Shown here piece after piece: positions 39,411 to 47,641 of a stretch of DNA of 62,098 nucleotides. Under the pieces are notes generated by a model. That model was not told where the DNA came from and ran no database searches. It saw only the letters and a list, made by a program, of their open reading frames with translations. The translations under genes and the position numbers were made by a program. Source of the stretch: Lachnospiraceae bacterium (GTDB lineage: Bacteria > Bacillota > Clostridia > Lachnospirales > Lachnospiraceae); assembly GCA_022510545.1 (NCBI GenBank), contig JAFLTG010000006.1, positions 1 through 62,098 of the forward strand, written 5' to 3'. The first letter of the stretch is position 1; each line of letters begins with the position of its first letter.

Positions 39411-41537
39411 ATGGCAGATATATCGGAATTTTCCAAGGCTGAAAATTATACTAACAGGGAACTCAGCTGGCTCCTTTTTGAAAAAAGGGTGCTGAGCGAA
39501 GCTATGGATGAGCAGCTTCCGTTATTTGAGCGGATTAAATTCCTAAGCATTACAGCTTCCAATCTGGATGAGTTCTTTATGGTCAGGGTTGCCTCTCTAA
39601 AGGATATGGTAACAGCCGGTTACAGCAAAAAGGATATTGCAGGACTTACGCCCATAGAGCAGCTTGAAAAGGTAAATAAAGAAACCCATGAACTGGTAAG
39701 GCAGCAATATGCTACATATAACCAATCGCTGCTGCCCGAACTTTTAAAACATGGGCTTCGCGTAATCGGACATCATGAGGATCTTACCAAGGAAGAAGCA
39801 GAGTATATTGATAAATATTTTGAAGATAACATTTATCCGGTTCTGACTCCTATGGCAGTGGATTCATCCAGACCGTTTCCGCTTATTCGCAATAAGTCTT
39901 TGAATATAGGAGCTCTTGTTAAGAAAAAAAGCGGAGAGGGTGAACTGGAGTTTGCTACCGTACAGGTGCCAAGTGTGCTTTCGAGGATAGTTCCTATACC
40001 CTCCGAAAAAGATAAGGCAGTTATACTTCTTGAAGAAGTGATTGAGAGGAATATCCATAAGCTGTTTTTGAACTACGATATTGTGTGCGCATATCCGTTT
40101 AGAATTATGCGTAGTGCCGATTTGCCAATAGAAGAGGATGAGGCTGAAGATCTGCTCGAAGAAATAGAGAAGCAGCTTAAGAAAAGACAGTGGGGTCAGG
40201 CAATCCGTCTGGAAATAGAAGAAGGAATGGATGAGAGACTCTTAAAAATCATTCAGGATGATCTTACAATAGGAAATGAGGATATATATCCAATCATGGG
40301 GCCGTTAGATATGACTTTTCTGATGAAGATGTATGACATGGACGGCTTTGATGATCTCAAAGAACATAGTTATATAGAACCCCAGCCCGTGCCACAGCTG
40401 CCGGAGGATGCCGACGTGTTTGAAAGGATAAGGGAAGAGGATATATTAATGTTTCATCCATATCAGACCTTTGAACCGGTTGTACGTTTTATAAGACAGG
40501 CGGCAAAGGATCCGGATGTGCTTGCAATAAAGCAGACTCTCTACAGGGTCAGCGGTAATTCTCCAATCATAGCCGCCCTTGAACAGGCGGCGGATAACGG
40601 GAAACAAGTTTCCGTTCTGGTAGAGCTTAAGGCAAGATTTGATGAAGAGAATAATATAGTATGGGCAAGGAGACTGGAAAAAGCCGGCTGCCATGTTATT
40701 TACGGCCTGCTTGGGCTAAAGACCCACAGCAAGATTACACTGGTTGTCCGGAGAGAAGAGAACGGTATAAGGCGTTATGTACATCTGGGAACCGGCAACT
40801 ATAACGATTCTACCGCCAAGCTTTATACTGATTTAGGGCTTCTTACCTGTTCGGAATCCATAGGTGAGGATGCAACCGCCGTCTTTAATATGCTTTCCGG
40901 CTATTCGGAGCCACGCTCATGGAATAAATTATCCCTGGCACCCTTGTGGCTTAAAGACAGATTCCTATATCTTATAAACAGGGAAAAGGAATATGCCCTT
41001 AACGGACGTCCGGCAAGGATTATTGCCAAGATGAATGCTCTCTGTGATAAGGATATAATTGAAGCATTATATGAGGCCGGAGCTGCCGGAGTGAAAATAG
41101 ATCTTATAATCAGAGGCATCTGCTGCCTTAAGACAGGACTGCCCGGAATCAGTGAAAATATCAGTGTCCGCTCTATTGTCGGAAATTATCTTGAGCATGC
41201 AAGAATATTTTATTTTGAGAACGGCGGAAAAGCGGAGTACTATCTTGCAAGTGCGGACTGGATGCCAAGAAATCTGGAAAAGCGCGTTGAAATTTTGTTT
41301 CCGATAGAGAAACCCGAATTGCAGAGTAAGATTATGTATATACTGGAATCTCAATTGGAGGATAATGTAAAAGCTCATATTCTTGGTCATAACGGAGTCT
41401 ATGAGAAAGTTGACAGGAAGGGAAAGGAAGCTTTTAATTCCCAGCTTGTTTTTTGTGAGCGTTCAAGGGCTGTGGCCAGAAAACAGGAAGAGATGGTTGA
41501 CAGTCGGGTTTTTATTCCGGAAAGGCATGGTCATTAG
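39411..41537 (+). CDS. ppk: polyphosphate kinase 1
   Basis: The 708-residue enzyme has the PPK1 N-terminal domain (NRELSWLLFEKRVL), DEFFMVRVASL, and two phospholipase-D-like catalytic halves with LKTHSKITLV carrying the autophosphorylated His and HLGTGNYND. It polymerises ATP gamma-phosphate into polyphosphate, reversibly. Clustering with ppx suggests joint control of polyphosphate level. Confidence 0.96.
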   Translation: MADISEFSKAENYTNRELSWLLFEKRVLSEAMDEQLPLFERIKFLSITASNLDEFFMVRVASLKDMVTAGYSKKDIAGLTPIEQLEKVNKETHELVRQQYATYNQSLLPELLKHGLRVIGHHEDLTKEEAEYIDKYFEDNIYPVLTPMAVDSSRPFPLIRNKSLNIGALVKKKSGEGELEFATVQVPSVLSRIVPIPSEKDKAVILLEEVIERNIHKLFLNYDIVCAYPFRIMRSADLPIEEDEAEDLLEEIEKQLKKRQWGQAIRLEIEEGMDERLLKIIQDDLTIGNEDIYPIMGPLDMTFLMKMYDMDGFDDLKEHSYIEPQPVPQLPEDADVFERIREEDILMFHPYQTFEPVVRFIRQAAKDPDVLAIKQTLYRVSGNSPIIAALEQAADNGKQVSVLVELKARFDEENNIVWARRLEKAGCHVIYGLLGLKTHSKITLVVRREENGIRRYVHLGTGNYNDSTAKLYTDLGLLTCSESIGEDATAVFNMLSGYSEPRSWNKLSLAPLWLKDRFLYLINREKEYALNGRPARIIAKMNALCDKDIIEALYEAGAAGVKIDLIIRGICCLKTGLPGISENISVRSIVGNYLEHARIFYFENGGKAEYYLASADWMPRNLEKRVEILFPIEKPELQSKIMYILESQLEDNVKAHILGHNGVYEKVDRKGKEAFNSQLVFCERSRAVARKQEEMVDSRVFIPERHGH

Positions 41538-41538
41538 G

Positions 41539-42126
41539 GTGAAAATTATATTAGCATCAGCATCCCCCAGGAGAAAAGAACTTTTGAAACAGGTGGGCAT
41601 ATCATTTAAAACTATGCCCAGTACAAAGGAAGAAAAAATTACAAAGGAAACTCCGGAAGAAATTGTAGAGGAACTTTCTTATCAGAAGGCAGTTGATATC
41701 TGTGCACAGTTAGAAGAGAGCATGAAGGAAGATTACGTTGTTATTGGCGCAGATACTATTGTTTCCGCCTGGGGCAAGGTAATGGGTAAACCAAAAGATA
41801 AGGAAGATGCTTGTATGATGCTTGAGCAGATTCAGGGAAAGAGCCATCAGGTGTATACGGGTGTTACATTAGCCTGGAAGTATAAAGATACTCCGGCAAT
41901 GTTTCATACCTTCCACGAATGTACTGATGTGACGGTGTTCCCTATGAACGCCGATGAGATAAAGAGTTATGTAAACTCGGGAGAACCTATGGATAAGGCG
42001 GGAGGCTATGCTATACAGGGACAATTTGCCGCTTATATACAGGGAATCTGCGGGGATTACTTCAATGTGGTCGGGCTGCCGGTAGGCAGGGTGTATCAGG
42101 AGATGAAACAGAGGAATTTGGTGTAA
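41539..42126 (+). CDS. maf: Maf family nucleotide pyrophosphatase
   Basis: The 195-residue protein has the Maf signature IILASASPRRKELLKQVG, IGADTIV, MGKPKD and the MDKAGGYAIQG segment. Maf enzymes hydrolyse non-canonical nucleoside triphosphates and have been linked to septum control. GTG 41539 gives the usual family N-terminus VKIILASASPRR; ATG 41527 is in frame but overlaps the end of ppk and is only one base from GGAAAGG. Confidence 0.92.
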   Translation: MKIILASASPRRKELLKQVGISFKTMPSTKEEKITKETPEEIVEELSYQKAVDICAQLEESMKEDYVVIGADTIVSAWGKVMGKPKDKEDACMMLEQIQGKSHQVYTGVTLAWKYKDTPAMFHTFHECTDVTVFPMNADEIKSYVNSGEPMDKAGGYAIQGQFAAYIQGICGDYFNVVGLPVGRVYQEMKQRNLV

Positions 42127-42193
42127 GGGACCTCCGAGATGTGCAGGCGGTGAAAAAGGTTAATTGATTTGATATGAAAGGGAGAAGAGAATT

Positions 42194-42451
42194 ATGTTTG
42201 ATGATGCTGTTTTAAAATGTTTTTTGGAGAAGCAGGGACAGTTGTTTCCGAAGGATGTAGTAGAGACATTGGAAGAGGCTGAGAATTTCTTGGAAGAGTG
42301 CATGGCTGTTGTCGTAGACTCTGTGCAGGAAGTCTGGGATTATTTTGATGCCGCGGGAATAGATATAGAAAATGCTGACGAAGAGGAGATATTGGAGGCT
42401 GACGAAGTCTTTGATATAGGCGATGGACGGTATCTTATTGTTGAATGTTAA
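42194..42451 (+). CDS. small acidic protein of unknown function
   Basis: This 85-residue protein is strongly acidic (many Glu and Asp, few Lys or Arg) and probably alpha-helical in its first 55 residues, ending in a beta hairpin (VFDIGDGRYLIVEC). AAAGGGAGAAG precedes ATG 42194. I do not recognise the family. It is 67 bases after maf and is followed by a terminator, so it is the last gene of the polyphosphate cluster. Confidence 0.7.
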   Translation: MFDDAVLKCFLEKQGQLFPKDVVETLEEAENFLEECMAVVVDSVQEVWDYFDAAGIDIENADEEEILEADEVFDIGDGRYLIVEC

Positions 42452-42495
42452 ATTGTAATCCGCATGTCAGCAATATGCATATGAGTATAGCAAAT

Positions 42496-42527
42496 AGGCA
42501 ATAACATTAATGGTTATTGCTTATTTT
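42496..42527 (+). terminator. terminator after the polyphosphate cluster
   Basis: AGGCAATAAC (42496-42505, counting the outer pairs) pairs with GTTATTGCTT (42513-42522), 7-base loop, followed by ATTTT. Confidence 0.7.
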
Positions 42528-42553
42528 ACTAAATGACCTACAAATGCTATATT
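42525..42553 (+). promoter_or_regulatory. promoter in front of a structured element
   Basis: TTTACT (42525-42530), 17-base spacer, TATATT (42548-42553), with TGC directly before it as an extended -10. Transcription would start near 42561, just before the hairpin. Confidence 0.5.
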
Positions 42554-42560
42554 ATAAGTA

Positions 42561-42617
42561 ATAGATTCCACCAAGCCTGGGCAGTTTCGCTGCATGCGTA
42601 ACACGGTGGGACTTTTG
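42561..42617 (+). ncRNA. candidate small structured RNA or attenuator
   Basis: The outer stem pairs TTCCACC (42566-42572) with GGTGGGA (42605-42611), including one G-U pair, and is followed by CTTTTG. An inner hairpin GCAG (42581-42584)/CTGC (42590-42593) has loop TTTCG. The segment is noticeably more GC-rich than its surroundings. It could be a small RNA of about 57 bases, a leader attenuator of the WYL operon, or simply a second terminator. I do not match it to a known RNA family. Confidence 0.4.
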
Positions 42618-42710
42618 TATTTAAAAAAAGAAATTTTTAATAAATTAATCACATAGACATATTCTGTCATTTAAGAGAAGTATAATAACAATACACAACG
42701 GGAGTTTCCT

Positions 42711-43667
42711 ATGGATGAACAAAAAAATAATAAAATTGAACGAGTACTTGGAATATATACAAAACTTATGAATGGCTGCCTAATTAATAAATCTGAAGAA
42801 GCTGTTAATTATGGTGTTAATGAGCGAAGTATTCAACGAGATATTGATGATATTCGTAATTTTTTAGAAATAAATTCTGATAAAACCGGAATAATTAATA
42901 CGATTATATATGATAGAATAAAAAAGGGTTACTGTCTTGAACAGATATATATATCCAAATTTACAAATAGTGAAATTTTAGCATTATGTAAAATTTTACT
43001 TGACAGTAGGGCATTTACTAAAGAAGAAATGTCTGGAATGCTTCAAAAATTGATAGACTGCTGTGTACCTGAGAGTAATCAAAAGTTGGTAAATGAACTT
43101 ATTAATAATGAAGCCTTTCATTATGTCGAGCCACAGCATAAAACTACATTTATTGACACAATGTGGAGCATAGGACAAGCTATCAGAAAGTACCAATATA
43201 TAGAAATTGACTATTACAGGACGAAAGACAAGACTGTTGTAAAAAGAAAAGTGAAGCCTGTAGCAATTATGTTTTCTGAATTTTATTTCTATATTACAGC
43301 ATTTATAGACGATGAGGAAGTAAGAAAAGATTTTGATGTCATTAATGATTCATTCCCTACAATTTATCGTGTAGATAGGATTAAAAAGCTGGAAGTACTT
43401 AATGAAAAATTTTATATTCCATACAGCAGCAGATTTGAAGAAGGAGAATTTCGAAAAAGGATTCAGTTTATGTATGGTGGTAAATTACATAAAGTTAAAT
43501 TTAAGTATTTAGGACCGGATATTGATGCAATTCTTGATCGTTTGCCAACAGCGCAAGTGTTGGATGAAGAAGATGGAGTTTATACAGTCAAAGCAGAAGT
43601 GTTTGGGAAAGGTATTGATATGTGGCTGAAGAGTCAGGGGGATAATATTGAAGTTTTGGAAGATTAA
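42711..43667 (+). CDS. WYL-domain transcriptional regulator
   Basis: The 318-residue protein has an N-terminal helix-turn-helix (about residues 8-60; EEAVNYGVNERSIQRDIDDI), a middle helical region, and a WYL domain (about 150-235; YIEIDYYRTKDKTVVKRKVKP, then FYFYITAF in place of the canonical WYL triplet, then YRVDRIKKLEVL), followed by a WCX-like C-terminus. WYL proteins are ligand-sensing regulators, frequent next to phage-defence genes. GGGAG precedes the ATG; a TATAAT at 42681-42686 may be its -10. The next gene starts within about 30 bases. AT content is higher than in the flanking regions. Confidence 0.9.
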   Translation: MDEQKNNKIERVLGIYTKLMNGCLINKSEEAVNYGVNERSIQRDIDDIRNFLEINSDKTGIINTIIYDRIKKGYCLEQIYISKFTNSEILALCKILLDSRAFTKEEMSGMLQKLIDCCVPESNQKLVNELINNEAFHYVEPQHKTTFIDTMWSIGQAIRKYQYIEIDYYRTKDKTVVKRKVKPVAIMFSEFYFYITAFIDDEEVRKDFDVINDSFPTIYRVDRIKKLEVLNEKFYIPYSSRFEEGEFRKRIQFMYGGKLHKVKFKYLGPDIDAILDRLPTAQVLDEEDGVYTVKAEVFGKGIDMWLKSQGDNIEVLED

Positions 43668-43697
43668 TAAATGGGAGGATATCCTGGGGGACAACAT

Positions 43698-44993
43698 ATG
43701 GTAAATAAGTTAAGAAAACTTAAAACTGAGTTTGACGAGGCTGATTCAAAATTTACAAATGAACTAAACAGTATGAAAGAAAATGTAAAGGAAGTATCTA
43801 AAAATGTTGATAAAACATTAAATGATTTATCGAATATCAATATAATTATTAGTGATATTGATAAGAACTTTGCAGAAAAAACATCAATAACAAATATAAA
43901 AGATATGAGGTTTTTATGGGGCGCTACTGCATTGCAATGTGGCAGATGGATGTTGATTCCTGCATTTGATGAGAAAACACTTACTCCAAATGTAGACGAT
44001 CGAAAGTCTGCATCAACGGAAGGGAGAAAAGATCTTACAAAAACAGGTAAGCAGCTTGATAAAAGTGGTGAAAATGTAATTAATAATCGTTTTATAAATT
44101 GCAGTCAAATAATGGCGCTTCCTGTTCCATATGACGCAATGAAAGGAACAGAAGACATAGTTATAAAAAATGTTACTTTGGAAGGTAAAAATTTAAGCGG
44201 TGGGAATCATCATTCAGCTACATGGGGGCATGATCCTATAATTGGTCATATTATTGGAACTGCCAATATACTTACGCGTTCCATTTCATTTAGAGATAGG
44301 CTGTGTACAACACGAATTGTAGAAATTCCATATGGAAGAGAGCAAATTGTAACTCATTTACCCTACAATTTTATACAAATGATAGGGGATGTGAGGACTA
44401 CATTAAGCGAAGATAAAAATAGGCTGGCAGCAGCTCATTTAAAACAGGTTCTTCATTTTCAGTCTGATAAGTTTACAAAAGATGGTCTCCCGATTCCATT
44501 AATTCCGCCAGGGATGCAACAGAGACTTTTAAAACAGAAGTGGAATAGCAAAGAGCTTGAGAACGTGTTAAAAGGTTCAATGAAAGGGATAACAGCACAA
44601 TTTGCAGTTGCGGCATTATTGAACACTTCTGTCGGAATACTACATGGATTTTGTTTCAATGAAAGTAAAGATAAAAGCCTTGATTTGTATAGTGTTCGGA
44701 CGAGGAAAGTTGTTGCTGCTTCCAATATTTTATCTTCCGTAATTAATATTGCGGCAATCGCAGGGGGAGCGACGGTAGGTATTCTTTCGGATAATCAGGA
44801 ATTGATTAAAAAATCAATAGCACATATAGACATAGGAGGGTATGTGGAAACGATACATCAGATTGCGAAATATAAAGCTTTACAGGAAACTATTAGAAGA
44901 GAATTTTTGGAGATGGAGTTATATAATAGGCTTTGTTCCGAAACATATTCATTTTTAGAGGAGGCGCATTATGAGCAAGAAAAAGAGTTTTAA
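43698..44993 (+). CDS. unknown protein with NHH...GHDP motif
   Basis: I cannot assign this 431-residue protein to a named family. It begins with a predicted coiled coil (about residues 1-60; KTEFDEADSKFTNELNSMKE). The centre contains ALPVPYDAM and then GGNHHSATWGHDPIIG followed by GTANILT, a His- and Gly-rich stretch that looks like an active or metal-binding site. A C-terminal hydrophobic segment (ASNILSSVINIAAIAGGATVGIL region) could be membrane-associated or core helices. I start at ATG 43698, 7 bases after GGGGG; ATG 43671 has no ribosome binding site. The gene overlaps the beta-helix gene by 23 bases, so both are co-translated under the WYL regulator. Confidence 0.7.
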   Translation: MVNKLRKLKTEFDEADSKFTNELNSMKENVKEVSKNVDKTLNDLSNINIIISDIDKNFAEKTSITNIKDMRFLWGATALQCGRWMLIPAFDEKTLTPNVDDRKSASTEGRKDLTKTGKQLDKSGENVINNRFINCSQIMALPVPYDAMKGTEDIVIKNVTLEGKNLSGGNHHSATWGHDPIIGHIIGTANILTRSISFRDRLCTTRIVEIPYGREQIVTHLPYNFIQMIGDVRTTLSEDKNRLAAAHLKQVLHFQSDKFTKDGLPIPLIPPGMQQRLLKQKWNSKELENVLKGSMKGITAQFAVAALLNTSVGILHGFCFNESKDKSLDLYSVRTRKVVAASNILSSVINIAAIAGGATVGILSDNQELIKKSIAHIDIGGYVETIHQIAKYKALQETIRREFLEMELYNRLCSETYSFLEEAHYEQEKEF

Positions 44994-47055
44994 TGAAGGA
45001 TTGGCATCAGGTATTAAAATCGCTGAAGATATAATGAAAAAAGAGGCTAAGGCGATGGATTATTTAGCGAATAAAATTGATAGTGTTGAATCAAAACAAG
45101 ATGATATTAGGAAAGCCGTAAATAATATTTTGGAATATCAGAATAGTAAGGCAGTAGAAGAATATTATGGAATTTGTAATAAATTGAGTCCCAATAGTGA
45201 ATTGCAGGATGAAGAAAAACATGTACTTTTGGATGTGTTAGCGACATTAGCATATAATAGTGAAAACTTCAATGACAATAAGGCACAAAAGTCGTATTTT
45301 TTGAATCTGAAACATTACATCCAACTTACTGACTATAATCCAAACACGGCATATAATTATGAGTTCATTGAAAATATTCGAGATTTAGATAGTCAGGAAA
45401 TTATATTAAAATGTATAAGGGAATTTTTATTTTTAGAAAATTTTGACTTTTCATTTGTGGAAGATTATAAAGATGTATTTGAATATTTTAGTATCAAGGA
45501 TAAGAAAATTTGTCAGATGGATCGAATGATTGATATTACTTATTATCTGTTTGGTGAAGATGGGATAATTGAAATGTATGGTGACCATGTTATGGCTAGG
45601 CAGCATATATTTGACGATGAAGATAATTCTGATGAGAATGGGGAAGTGGAAATAACTCTAGAAAAACTTATAATAACAGATGTTATTAACATAAGTGAAA
45701 ACGAAGAAAAGTTATTTGAAAATAAGGCTATTTATTTTAGAGGAAATGTTGAATGTAAAGGTAGATTAATATTTAGGAATTGTCAACTATTCTATTATGA
45801 AAAGGGTGTGATAAGTCAGATTCATATGGCTTCATCTTCTTATATTGAACTGGATACATGTGTTATTAGAGGGTTAGGTGTAAATAATCAAGAATATTTT
45901 ATTTCTGGCTCTGGATATTCCTCAAAAATAGTGAAATGTATTTTTGAGGAAGCGGCTTACTTCATGGAGAACACTCGCTATGAAATGATGCAAATTGAGG
46001 AGTGTGAAATTTTAAATTGCTGGTCTTTGATTAAAGCAGATACTTATAATGTAAAATCATCAATAAATAAATGCTTTATCTTATGTGAGAAAGAACCTTC
46101 ATATATTGATGAAGAATTTTTAAACAATTGTAGTGTGCGTGTTAATTTGTTTAAAATTAGTAATTGCATTATTTTTGGTTGTAGAATGGTGGGGAATAAT
46201 GATTTTGTTTATGATTTTAATGATGATAAGATAGTAGGAGTTGTGCAGTTATATGAACATTTGAAAAATAATATGAAAAATAGAAAAGTAAGTGGGGTTT
46301 TGTTCTCACATGCCGCAGAAATAACAAATTGCACATTTGAAAATATAAATATGCATATATCAGCAATTAAAATTGTTGGATGTAAGTTTAAAAATTGTAG
46401 AAATATAATTGATAATTTTCTTGATGTAGGAAGTGGTGTTAAAACAGAAGTAGTTAAGGATTGCCTATTTCATAAATGCAAAAAAATATTAAATTCAGAG
46501 TATTATAGTGTTATAATTCAGGATTGTCAGTTTTCTGAGTGCATAGGTTATTTAATAAGGGTTGGGGATAATTCAAGGATTGAATCCTGCCAATTTTATA
46601 ATATTAAGATATCAGAGGACTATAATACAGCGATTAGTATAAATGGAACAGAGAATTATGCATCAAGTAGTGTCGTGAAGTGTGAGTTTAATGGATTGAA
46701 GGCTAATGATGGATATTTAATAAAAGTAGATGCTACTAAAAAAATTAAACCTATTATTGCATCACTAGAACACTGCACATTAAAAAATGCATGTACTTTA
46801 AGAAAAAGTGGTGCGGTTATAAAATCCAGTTATTATTACTATGGTTTATTTGATAAAAAACATATAGAACAGGGAATTAGCACATATGATTTAAATGGCT
46901 TTTCTAATATCCCAAACGAGGGTGGAGAGTGTTTGGATTATACGCTAAAAGAAACAGATGTCTATGGAAATAAGATAGGGGCAGATGAAAATGTTAAGCC
47001 AGGTATCAGCGGTAAAACCACCAATGCTATCTACCATGAAGAATTAGTTTTTTAA
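44971..47055 (+). CDS. predicted right-handed parallel beta-helix protein
   Basis: The 694-residue protein has an N-terminal helical/coiled-coil part (about residues 1-60), a helical region to about 190, then from about 230 to 640 a series of 20-30-residue coils with the pattern [KDEN]-C-x-[FI]-x-x-C: KCIFEEA, ECEILNC, NCIIFGC, GCKFKNC, DCLFHKC, DCQFSEC, SCQFYNI, KCEFNGL. This spacing indicates a pectate-lyase-like parallel beta-helix with Cys/Asn ladders. No signal peptide is visible, so it acts inside the cell. GAGGAGG precedes the ATG within the upstream gene. A strong terminator follows. Function unknown. Confidence 0.75.
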   Translation: MSKKKSFNEGLASGIKIAEDIMKKEAKAMDYLANKIDSVESKQDDIRKAVNNILEYQNSKAVEEYYGICNKLSPNSELQDEEKHVLLDVLATLAYNSENFNDNKAQKSYFLNLKHYIQLTDYNPNTAYNYEFIENIRDLDSQEIILKCIREFLFLENFDFSFVEDYKDVFEYFSIKDKKICQMDRMIDITYYLFGEDGIIEMYGDHVMARQHIFDDEDNSDENGEVEITLEKLIITDVINISENEEKLFENKAIYFRGNVECKGRLIFRNCQLFYYEKGVISQIHMASSSYIELDTCVIRGLGVNNQEYFISGSGYSSKIVKCIFEEAAYFMENTRYEMMQIEECEILNCWSLIKADTYNVKSSINKCFILCEKEPSYIDEEFLNNCSVRVNLFKISNCIIFGCRMVGNNDFVYDFNDDKIVGVVQLYEHLKNNMKNRKVSGVLFSHAAEITNCTFENINMHISAIKIVGCKFKNCRNIIDNFLDVGSGVKTEVVKDCLFHKCKKILNSEYYSVIIQDCQFSECIGYLIRVGDNSRIESCQFYNIKISEDYNTAISINGTENYASSSVVKCEFNGLKANDGYLIKVDATKKIKPIIASLEHCTLKNACTLRKSGAVIKSSYYYYGLFDKKHIEQGISTYDLNGFSNIPNEGGECLDYTLKETDVYGNKIGADENVKPGISGKTTNAIYHEELVF

Positions 47056-47117
47056 TTAATTAAGTATTATAACTAAATATAATAAAAGAAATCTCGCAGT
47101 GTAAAAGATAAAAATGT

Positions 47118-47160
47118 AAGGCAAAAATTTAGCAAAAAAGTTAAGTTTTTGCCTTTTTAT
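47118..47160 (+). terminator. terminator of the WYL/beta-helix operon
   Basis: AAGGCAAAAA (47118-47127) pairs with TTTTTGCCTT (47146-47155); the inner TTTAGC and GTTAAG extend the stem with two G-U pairs, leaving an A6 loop. A T-run follows. Confidence 0.85.
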
Positions 47161-47201
47161 AATTAGCTTTAATGATATTGACAAATAATTACTGTATAAT
47201 T

Positions 47202-47396
47202 ATGGAATATTTTAAGTTTGAGTGGGATGAAAATAAAAACCAAACAAACTTAAAAAAGCATAAAATATCGTTTGAAGAAGCAAAAACAGTGTTTTATGAT
47301 GAGAATGCATTGGTTATTGATGATTCGGAGTATTCGAAGGATGAAGAAAGATTTATAAAAGCAACTGAAACAAATCAGTATAATGAATTTTATTAA
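47202..47396 (+). pseudogene. BrnT-family toxin remnant with internal deletion
   Basis: The N-terminal half, FKFEWDENKNQTNLKKH then ISFEEAKTVFYDENALVIDD and SKDEERFI, is a typical BrnT (DUF497) toxin. In intact BrnT the next residues are an ILG-type strand, a VVxH strand and an RIISAR strand. Here EERFI joins directly to KATETNQYNEFY, which matches the family's C-terminal helix (usually SARKAT...ExxxY). About 30 residues, holding most of the RNase core, are missing in frame. At 64 residues the product is too short to be an active toxin. The ATG at 47202 lacks a ribosome binding site. Confidence 0.75.
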
Positions 47397-47415
47397 GTAA
47401 GAATGGAGGATTAAT

Positions 47416-47625
47416 ATGAGAGAAGAATATGATTTTTCTAATGCGAGAAGAAATCCCTATGTAAAAAAAGCAAAAAAGCAGATAACCATAAATCTTGACA
47501 GTGACACTGTTGATTATTTTAAAGCTCAGGCAGAGCGTTCCGGAATACCGTATCAGACTTTAATTAATCTATATTTATCAGACTGTGCAACAAAAAAAAG
47601 AGAACTTCATATGTCATGGAAATGA
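47416..47625 (+). CDS. BrnA-like ribbon-helix-helix antitoxin
   Basis: The 69-residue protein has a short N-terminal part (REEYDFSNARRNPYVKK) and a ribbon-helix-helix domain, QITINLDSDTVDYFKAQA with GIPYQTLINLYL, as in BrnA/CopG antitoxins. GGAGG precedes the ATG. BrnA normally binds BrnT and represses the operon; here its partner is truncated, so it may be an orphan regulator. It is convergent with the HAD gene, with 16 bases between. Confidence 0.85.
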   Translation: MREEYDFSNARRNPYVKKAKKQITINLDSDTVDYFKAQAERSGIPYQTLINLYLSDCATKKRELHMSWK

Positions 47626-47641
47626 TTTATGAAATCTGCGC

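What the first reader, a model, noticed from the sequence alone, without database searches (positions are those of the whole stretch)
42711..47055. Three-gene WYL / GHDP-motif / beta-helix cassette: candidate undescribed system
A WYL regulator, an unknown protein with a His-rich putative active site and a large intracellular parallel beta-helix protein are packed with a 23-base overlap and close with one strong terminator. The block is distinctly more AT-rich than the housekeeping DNA on both sides and lies next to a toxin-antitoxin remnant. WYL regulators are well known markers of phage-defence operons. I do not recognise this gene combination among named defence systems.
Basis: partly seen in the sequence, partly recalled or inferred. 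Interest (0 to 1): 0.8.

Follow-up and report, generated by a model that had tools for sequence, protein, structure and literature searches.

The report
Bunzi-like defence cassette with swappable sensor
A gut bacterium carries an inserted three-gene cassette whose middle protein belongs to the effector family of a known bacterial anti-virus system, and whose third protein keeps a constant front part while its back part is exchanged for unrelated shapes in other bacteria, which looks like an immune system that changes its detector.

Summary
In detail: a WYL regulator, a 440-aa GHDP-motif protein and a 694-aa beta-helix protein form one AT-rich run (GC 0.309 against 0.406). The ~4.6-kb block is absent from the closest relative examined and not universal in the genus. 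The middle protein is not unknown: it matches BnzB, the Bunzi effector (PADLOC E 3.9e-23). The third protein has no significant library match, but its first ~205 residues are a module found directly downstream of BnzB-like genes in 24 of 89 loci; of 5 module carriers among 397 family genomes, 4 have a BnzB-type gene directly upstream. Behind the module the C-terminal domain is exchanged: beta-helix here, elsewhere BspA-type LRR, DUF5050, EF-Tu domain 3 (phage-resistance plasmid pNP40) and others. In 25 cassettes 300 of 300 BnzB-like pairs align but only 16 of 300 C-terminal pairs. A same-genus cassette is 76/57/37% identical in its three conserved parts, with no C-terminal match. Best reading: a WYL-controlled Bunzi-family variant with conserved effector and swappable recognition subunit. 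Anti-phage activity is inferred, not shown; a crude island test found no enrichment; the partner is not a detectable BnzA. New variant of a known kind.

The parts
42529..47163 (.). Inserted block of about 4.6 kb (limits accurate to a few tens of bases)
   Evidence: blastn of relative G338 (L120): window 41000-42528 aligns at 96.5% and the alignment resumes at 47163; GC 0.309 vs 0.406
42711..43667 (+). WYL-domain transcriptional regulator, 318 aa
   Evidence: PF13280 E 4.4e-8; PADLOC WYL E 1.9e-18; 76% identical to the WYL gene of the same-genus cassette in G308
43671..44993 (+). BnzB-like protein (probable effector), 440 aa; more likely start at 43698 (431 aa)
   Evidence: PADLOC BnzB PDLC03834 E 3.9e-23; F67, D155, H180, H187, D188, H262, D266, H325 and D387 in 73 of 73 aligned sequences
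44971..45609 (+). Conserved N-terminal module of the partner protein (residues 1-213: coiled coil plus helical domain)
   Evidence: A5 profile; module found at +1 of BnzB-like genes in 24 of 89 loci; helices 3-56 and between 74 and 215 in the model
45661..46794 (+). Exchanged C-terminal domain: parallel beta-helix (residues 231-608), proposed recognition domain
   Evidence: AlphaFold model and Foldseek; clusters with the C-termini of 5 of the 24 other partners compared
44971..47055 (+). Whole partner gene, 694 aa
   Evidence: no hit in Pfam or PADLOC at E <= 1, none above cut-off in NCBIfam, best PHROGs hit E 0.073, no PDB sequence at E <= 1
47118..47155 (+). Probable intrinsic terminator, 16-pair AT-rich stem with T tail
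47172..47396 (+). brnT toxin gene remnant, outside the block
   Evidence: PF04365 E 1.4e-16, profile 1-46 of 77; 95-aa gene at this place in relative G338
47417..47626 (+). brnA-like antitoxin ORF, outside the block (label by likeness, no family search run on it)
   Evidence: Sequence read; window 47361-47628 aligns at 91% with the same place of the relative, L120:2146-2406

Best explanation
It is a mobile, WYL-controlled variant of the Bunzi anti-phage system with a swappable recognition subunit. SHOWN by computation: the middle protein is a BnzB homologue with an invariant set of His/Asp residues; the third protein has a conserved N-terminal module that travels with BnzB-type genes and a C-terminal domain that has been exchanged many times; the block was gained or lost recently at this site. 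INFERRED: the WYL protein keeps the operon low until infection or damage. The partner's C-terminal domain (here a cytosolic beta-helix) binds or is altered by a phage product. The constant coiled-coil/helical module passes the signal to the BnzB-like protein, which acts as the effector, probably as a metal-dependent, membrane-associated hydrolase centred on H180/H187/D188/H262/D266, stopping the infected cell. Swapping the C-terminal domain would change what is recognised and leave the effector untouched.
For: BnzB family: PADLOC E 3.9e-23 for the window protein, 7.2e-25 for G308, 8e-25 for G867, 1.9e-13 for pNP40; in the other direction my profile of BnzB-like proteins hits the genuine BnzB of pLLI11B at 1.8e-5. 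Links to genuine Bunzi: on Lactococcus pLLI11B the order is WYL, a small gene, BnzB-like, then BnzA (E 5.1e-128) and BnzB (E 2.7e-150), all on one strand; in G116 a WYL gene, a BnzB (E 1.2e-40) and an N-module partner are adjacent, and the partner's residues 486-575 hit BnzA (E 3.3e-8). Co-occurrence: N-module at +1, same strand, in 24 of 89 BnzB-like loci (one of them, L105, had been fetched through the module); 4 of 5 module carriers among 397 family genomes have a BnzB-type gene directly upstream, 3 of these 4 with WYL; the fifth, G250, lies beside a type III Cas7/Csm3 gene (9.6e-153) and a WYL gene (1.8e-17). WYL within 6 genes in 15 of 24 cassette loci and 17 of 65 other loci, against 4 WYL genes in the own genome (87% complete). 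Swapping: of 300 pairs from 25 cassettes, BnzB-like align in 300, N-module in 249, C-terminus in 16; of 11 pairs with N-module identity of 55% or more, 7 have no C-terminal match. Treponema L035/L038: BnzB-like 98.3% identical with dS 0.05, rising to about 0.6-1.1 from residue ~300 of the partner, i.e. segment replacement. Same genus: WYL 76%, BnzB-like 57%, N-module 37%, C-terminus no match. C-terminal domains: EF-Tu domain 3 on pNP40 (Pfam 7.1e-23, PDB 3.3e-25), LRR_5 (1.1e-80), DUF5050 (5.8e-14). pNP40 also carries AbiE, AbiF and LlaJI (PMC6458302, passages). Mobility: empty site in G338, neither block nor brnTA in G326 and G294.
Against: No phage experiment exists for this cassette in anything I could read. 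The neighbours are not enriched for defence families in a crude count: 53 PADLOC families at E <= 1e-10 among 141 neighbour proteins (of 174 eligible) against 65 among 92 proteins from the starts of 14 contigs of the own genome. The N-module has no significant match to TerB (hhalign probability 5%; 0.7% against the TerB-type gene beside the own genome's BnzB and its relatives). BnzA does not match P0003 nor 7 other partners tested. A direct profile comparison of the 73 BnzB-like proteins with the single BnzB of the own genome (L017) is not significant (probability 0.2%), and the BnzB-like profile misses that protein, although PADLOC's BnzB hits both: the window protein is a distant member. No solved fold matches the BnzB-like model (best E 0.41). 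Membrane association is weak: 44 of 73 sequences have a 19-residue window with hydropathy of 1.6 or more. The constancy of G192-I200 is partly forced by the search pattern.
Confidence: 0.62

Rival explanations
1. A stress-response or toxin-like module (membrane or DNA damage, or competitor-induced) that uses a Bunzi-type effector but does not act against phages.
For: WYL regulators also serve DNA-damage and genotoxic-stress responses (PMC10693628 and PMC11804915, abstract starts in the listing); no defence-island enrichment; a TA remnant lies next door and a BrnTA-like pair lies beside another BnzB-type locus (L016, by likeness).
Against: PADLOC assigns the family to an anti-phage system; genuine BnzA/BnzB share the run on pLLI11B; repeated C-terminal replacement fits recognition of changing partners better than a fixed stress signal.
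Confidence: 0.2
2. A contact-dependent or secreted polymorphic toxin: conserved N-terminus and variable C-terminal toxin tip, with the middle protein as immunity or export factor.
For: Constant N-terminus with exchanged C-terminus is the signature of polymorphic toxins (described in PMC12419801, passage).
Against: The partner has no hydrophobic or signal-like segment and no secretion or trafficking domain was found. The constant protein is the BnzB-like one, whereas an immunity protein should vary with the toxin. The C-termini that could be named are binding or scaffold folds (beta-helix, LRR, EF-Tu domain 3), not toxin domains; most of the 18 C-terminal clusters could not be named.
Confidence: 0.08
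3. It is simply a Bunzi system whose BnzA has diverged beyond recognition, with no new architecture.
For: BnzB homology; one partner (G116) contains a BnzA-like stretch; the N-module/TerB comparison is weak but co-linear over 104 columns.
Against: The BnzA profile does not hit P0003 or the 7 other partners tested outside G116. On pLLI11B a full BnzA/BnzB pair sits next to a BnzB-like gene as separate genes, so the two kinds coexist.
Confidence: 0.1

Closest known systems
Bunzi (BnzA/BnzB)
   Same: The middle protein is in the BnzB family; partner gene directly adjacent; one locus (G116) combines WYL, a BnzB and an N-module partner with a BnzA-like stretch; on pLLI11B both kinds share one run of genes.
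   Different: No BnzA or TerB domain detected in the window partner; its C-terminus is a beta-helix and is exchanged between loci; WYL gene in front; the window protein is a distant member (440 aa, best stretch on profile positions 188-449 of 504).
WYL regulators of defence islands (BrxR, CapW)
   Same: WYL-domain regulator upstream of a probable immune operon.
   Different: Here the WYL gene is the first gene of the same run as effector and partner; its signal is unknown. The BrxR and CapW papers were seen only in a search listing.
Polymorphic toxins
   Same: Constant N-terminus and variable C-terminus.
   Different: No secretion parts and no signal segment found, constant neighbouring protein, scaffold-like rather than toxic C-termini where they could be named.
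Integrated-decoy immune receptors (plant NLR-ID; recalled)
   Same: Exchangeable recognition domain on a constant signalling core, including a piece of a host protein (EF-Tu domain 3).
   Different: Analogy only; no sequence relation, and recognition is not shown.

Membership tests
Bunzi | BnzB homologue | tested here: met
   PDLC03834 E 3.9e-23; but a direct profile comparison with the own genome's BnzB is not significant
Bunzi | Adjacent BnzA homologue | tested here: not met
   P0003 has no PADLOC hit at E up to 1; of 8 other partners tested only G116's C-terminal part hits BnzA
Bunzi | TerB domain in the system (review PMC10952713, one table passage) | tested here: inconclusive
   No Pfam TerB hit in P0003; hhalign of N-module vs TerB profile probability 5%, E 0.0077
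Bunzi | Anti-phage activity | not testable with these tools
WYL defence regulators (BrxR/CapW type) | WYL domain | tested here: met
   PF13280 E 4.4e-8
WYL defence regulators (BrxR/CapW type) | N-terminal winged helix DNA-binding domain | tested here: inconclusive
   No Pfam HTH hit; PADLOC WYL model covers residues 7-242
Polymorphic toxins | Secretion or trafficking domain and cognate immunity gene | tested here: not met
   No such domain in P0003; no hydrophobic segment; the next gene is a BrnT remnant
Lipocone superfamily | Helical membrane core with its conserved polar active site | not tested
   Only considered: no fold match for P0002 in the PDB; PMC12419801 seen in passages and one section

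The most novel reading that the evidence does not exclude
A bacterial immune family in which one effector (BnzB-like) is combined, by recombination behind a constant adaptor (around residues 205-300 of the partner), with interchangeable recognition domains: beta-helix, BspA-type LRR, DUF5050, EF-Tu domain 3 as a host-protein decoy, and, in a sister form with a different linker, a dynamin-type GTPase. It would be a prokaryotic counterpart of integrated-decoy receptors.
Probability: 0.33. Interest if true: 0.85.

Novelty: new variant of a known kind. Interest (0 to 1): 0.64.

Why it matters
The mechanism of Bunzi is listed as unknown in a 2026 review (PMC12926258, one passage). A natural series of cassettes with the same effector and adaptor but different C-terminal domains lets one ask what triggers the effector: the C-terminal domain should dictate the trigger. 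The EF-Tu piece on pNP40 gives a concrete first hypothesis, namely that a phage protein acting on EF-Tu is sensed through a decoy. pNP40 can be studied in ordinary dairy laboratory strains.

Tried and rejected
Chance ORFs: rejected, conserved gene order elsewhere. Core genome genes: rejected, empty site in the closest relative examined, and only 6 of 60 same-genus genomes (own included) have a P0002 homologue. Phage cargo: 1 of 50,697 phage records has a weak P0002 match and a scan of the viral contigs gave 4 BnzB-like loci. I mapped three of these four (L129, L131, L132): no N-module was found, but L131 ends right after the gene, and L130 was not mapped. P0003 N-module as TerB: not significant. 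Known fold for the BnzB-like protein: none. RNA element: two hits, both below the gathering score.

Defence island: no enrichment. This test is crude: it counts PADLOC families, not proteins, only the first 25 of 53 and of 65 families are shown, the control comes from the starts of 14 contigs of one genome and is smaller (92 vs 141). Single loci do lie beside defence genes (L015: Cas8c and Cas3; L106: type III Cas7).

Diversifying selection in the C-terminus: dN/dS 0.49 in L035/L038 with raised dS, so replacement by recombination fits better. The first C-terminal split used over-long module ends for some proteins (e.g. L076, L059, window); it was redone with the best single domain end, giving 16 instead of 15 matching pairs and the same 18 clusters. 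G116 (L143) was left out of this count. 'No BLAST match' is not proof of different folds: L071 and L076 score above shuffles in a global alignment (59 against 24, sd 8) though they count as separate clusters. Several C-termini (L012, L022, L027, L029, L033, L053, L122) look like beta-propellers to me by eye; only L105 has a family hit (DUF5050), and neither L105 nor L122 matches a PDB sequence. With the A4 alignment three more class genomes gave weak matches (E 8e-5 to 7e-4) that I did not examine.

Literature: searches found no description of this cassette, but the Grafakou 2024 lactococcal plasmid paper and Millman 2022 are not held, and the former could already describe the pNP40 or pLLI11B locus.
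Full report
WHAT IS THERE. The window lies in a Lachnospiraceae-type genome (a genome of its family, G077, has a contig of the same length, 63,727 bases, as a record of Ohessyouella blattaphilus; inference). At 42711-47055 three + strand genes encode a WYL regulator (318 aa), a 440-aa protein and a 694-aa protein. The block 42533-47165 has GC 0.309 against 0.406 in the rest of the window; 193 same-length stretches outside it span 0.382-0.434.

AN INSERTION. The closest of 60 same-genus genomes by its flank, G338, aligns at 96.5% up to 42528 and resumes at 47163: the block is missing and a 95-aa brnT and a brnA-like ORF occupy the site. Two more distant relatives (G326, G294, about 75% identity) have neither the block nor brnTA. 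So the gap between the 85-aa gene and the HAD-type phosphatase gene is a variable site. A P0002 homologue occurs in 6 of 60 same-genus genomes, the own one included. One of them, G308, has the whole cassette on another contig (C23) than its copy of this flank (C4). With the A5 module profile, 1 of 398 genomes sampled across the phylum (the own genome) and 5 of 397 across the family have the partner module; with the A4 alignment 3 of 146 in the order (window, G175 with a full cassette, G250) and 5 of 391 in the class, three of them weak and not examined. The cassette is rare and patchy.

THE MIDDLE PROTEIN. It has no Pfam or NCBIfam match above cut-off but matches PADLOC's BnzB (E 3.9e-23, best stretch residues 101-357 to profile 188-449 of 504). 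A pattern scan of 84,980 species genomes gave 86 relatives, of which 80 were kept. In an alignment of 73 sequences (P0002 and 72 of these relatives) F67, D155, H180, G186, H187, D188, G192, H262, D266, P276, H325, D387 and G389 never vary; G192-I200 lie in the search pattern, so their constancy is partly forced. With two more distant members added (L016 and L017, alignment A1 of 7), H180, H187, H262, S265 and D266 are still invariant. Against this, a profile comparison of the 73 with the single L017 protein is not significant. The AlphaFold model (mean pLDDT 84.8, pTM 0.58) is mostly helical and matches no solved fold. A metal-dependent hydrolase is my inference from the His/Asp set.

THE PARTNER. 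Model: N-terminal coiled coil, helical domain to about residue 215, beta-helix at 231-608 (mean pLDDT 68.6); Foldseek's best hits are beta-helix proteins. It has no signal-like or membrane segment, so the beta-helix should be cytosolic. The first ~205 residues are shared with partners of other BnzB-like genes. In 89 BnzB-like loci (86 fetched loci after dropping four duplicates, the window, L105 and L122; L105 was itself found through the module) the module profile found 25 proteins in 24 loci; each of the 24 has one directly downstream on the same strand. Seen from the module's side, of five carriers in 397 family genomes the window, G013, G867 and G116 have a BnzB-type gene directly upstream. 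G250 does not: its neighbours include a type III Cas7/Csm3 gene and a WYL gene, and none of the six neighbours tested matches BnzB. WYL genes lie within six genes in 15 of the 24 cassette loci (11 directly upstream) and in 17 of the 65 others; the own genome, 87% complete, has four WYL genes.

SWAPPED C-TERMINI. From 25 cassettes (300 pairs) BnzB-like proteins align in 300 and modules in 249 pairs at E up to 1e-3, while C-termini align in 16; there are 18 C-terminal clusters, the window's with L025, L035, L036, L038 and L046. Of 11 pairs with modules at least 55% identical, 7 have no C-terminal match, e.g. L027/L046 (67%) and L029/L033 (72%), whose C-terminal global scores are at shuffle level. 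In G308, same genus as the window, identity falls from 76% (WYL) to 57% (BnzB-like) to 37% (module) to no match (C-terminus). In two Treponema cassettes with related genes downstream the BnzB-like genes are 98.3% identical in protein (dS 0.05) and the partner C-terminus 63% (dS 0.55), with synonymous divergence jumping near residue 300: a segment was replaced. Named C-terminal domains are BspA-type LRR (1.1e-80), EF-Tu domain 3 on the conjugative phage-resistance plasmid pNP40 (7.1e-23; residues 388-486 align with the last 99 residues of an EF-Tu chain) and DUF5050 (5.8e-14). A sister partner in Lachnospira eligens, which the module profile does not hit, carries a dynamin-type GTPase (1.9e-18; it also matches PADLOC LeoA at 2.4e-10) behind a similar start, next to WYL and a BnzB-like gene.

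LINK TO BUNZI. On Lactococcus plasmid pLLI11B a WYL gene, a small gene and a BnzB-like gene (E 1e-17) are followed by BnzA (5.1e-128) and BnzB (2.7e-150). In G116 a WYL gene, a BnzB (1.2e-40) and a module partner are adjacent, and the partner's residues 486-575 match BnzA (3.3e-8). The own genome also has a BnzB-type gene (4.3e-32) next to a gene with a weak TerB match (1.2e-4, just under the Pfam cut-off) at G000:C2. Bunzi appears among phage-defence systems with a TerB domain in PMC10952713 (one table passage) and with BnzA and BnzB in PMC11206119 (one table passage); the original paper is not held, so its experiments are recalled.

HOW IT MAY WORK. Shown: family membership of the middle protein, gene order, domain exchange, mobility. 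Inferred: WYL control, recognition by the C-terminal domain, signalling through the module, effector action of the BnzB-like protein with cell arrest. Against: no island enrichment in a crude test, no activity test, no TerB/BnzA identity of the module, weak direct similarity to the own genome's BnzB.

NOVELTY. Searches show no description of this cassette in the held library. The lactococcal plasmid paper (Grafakou 2024) is not held; [quoted passage not shown] I therefore rate it a new variant of a known kind.

Noticed in passing
L017:6931-16911 (own genome, G000:C2): A second, more Bunzi-like locus in the same genome: a BnzB homologue (544 aa) with a weak-TerB gene, a 146-aa gene and a Gly-rich 328-aa gene, behind two large proteins that look exported by eye.
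   Followed up: partly
window 47172-47626: brnT remnant with a shortened 3' half next to a brnA-like ORF; the closest relative examined has a 95-aa brnT. A BrnT/BrnA-like pair also sits beside another BnzB-type locus (L016:7363-7928).
   Followed up: partly
L013, L014, L016, L123 and others: Many BnzB-like genes have instead a small Gly-rich, probably membrane-inserting protein directly upstream; one such cluster (c4) alone covers 14 of 87 loci. L016's gene is close to BnzB proper (E 1.6e-64).
   Followed up: partly
L124, L125, L126, L127: In the same genus BnzB-like genes sit in phage-like elements (by eye) with a TerB-like 138-142-aa protein, a Gly-rich protein and a conserved 310-344-aa downstream gene.
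   Followed up: partly
L106:719-7082 (G250): Partner module without a BnzB gene, followed by a serpin-like protein (by eye) and lying beside a type III Cas7/Csm3 gene (E 9.6e-153) and a WYL gene (E 1.8e-17).
   Followed up: partly
L018:9230-10690 (pNP40): EF-Tu domain 3 at the C-terminus of the partner protein on a lactococcal phage-resistance plasmid: a possible host-protein decoy.
   Followed up: partly
L015:52-7889 (G098): A BnzB-like gene near a type I-C CRISPR-Cas operon (Cas8c E 1.2e-136, Cas3c 8.4e-172), with a DUF262/GmrSD-like gene (by eye) between.
   Followed up: partly
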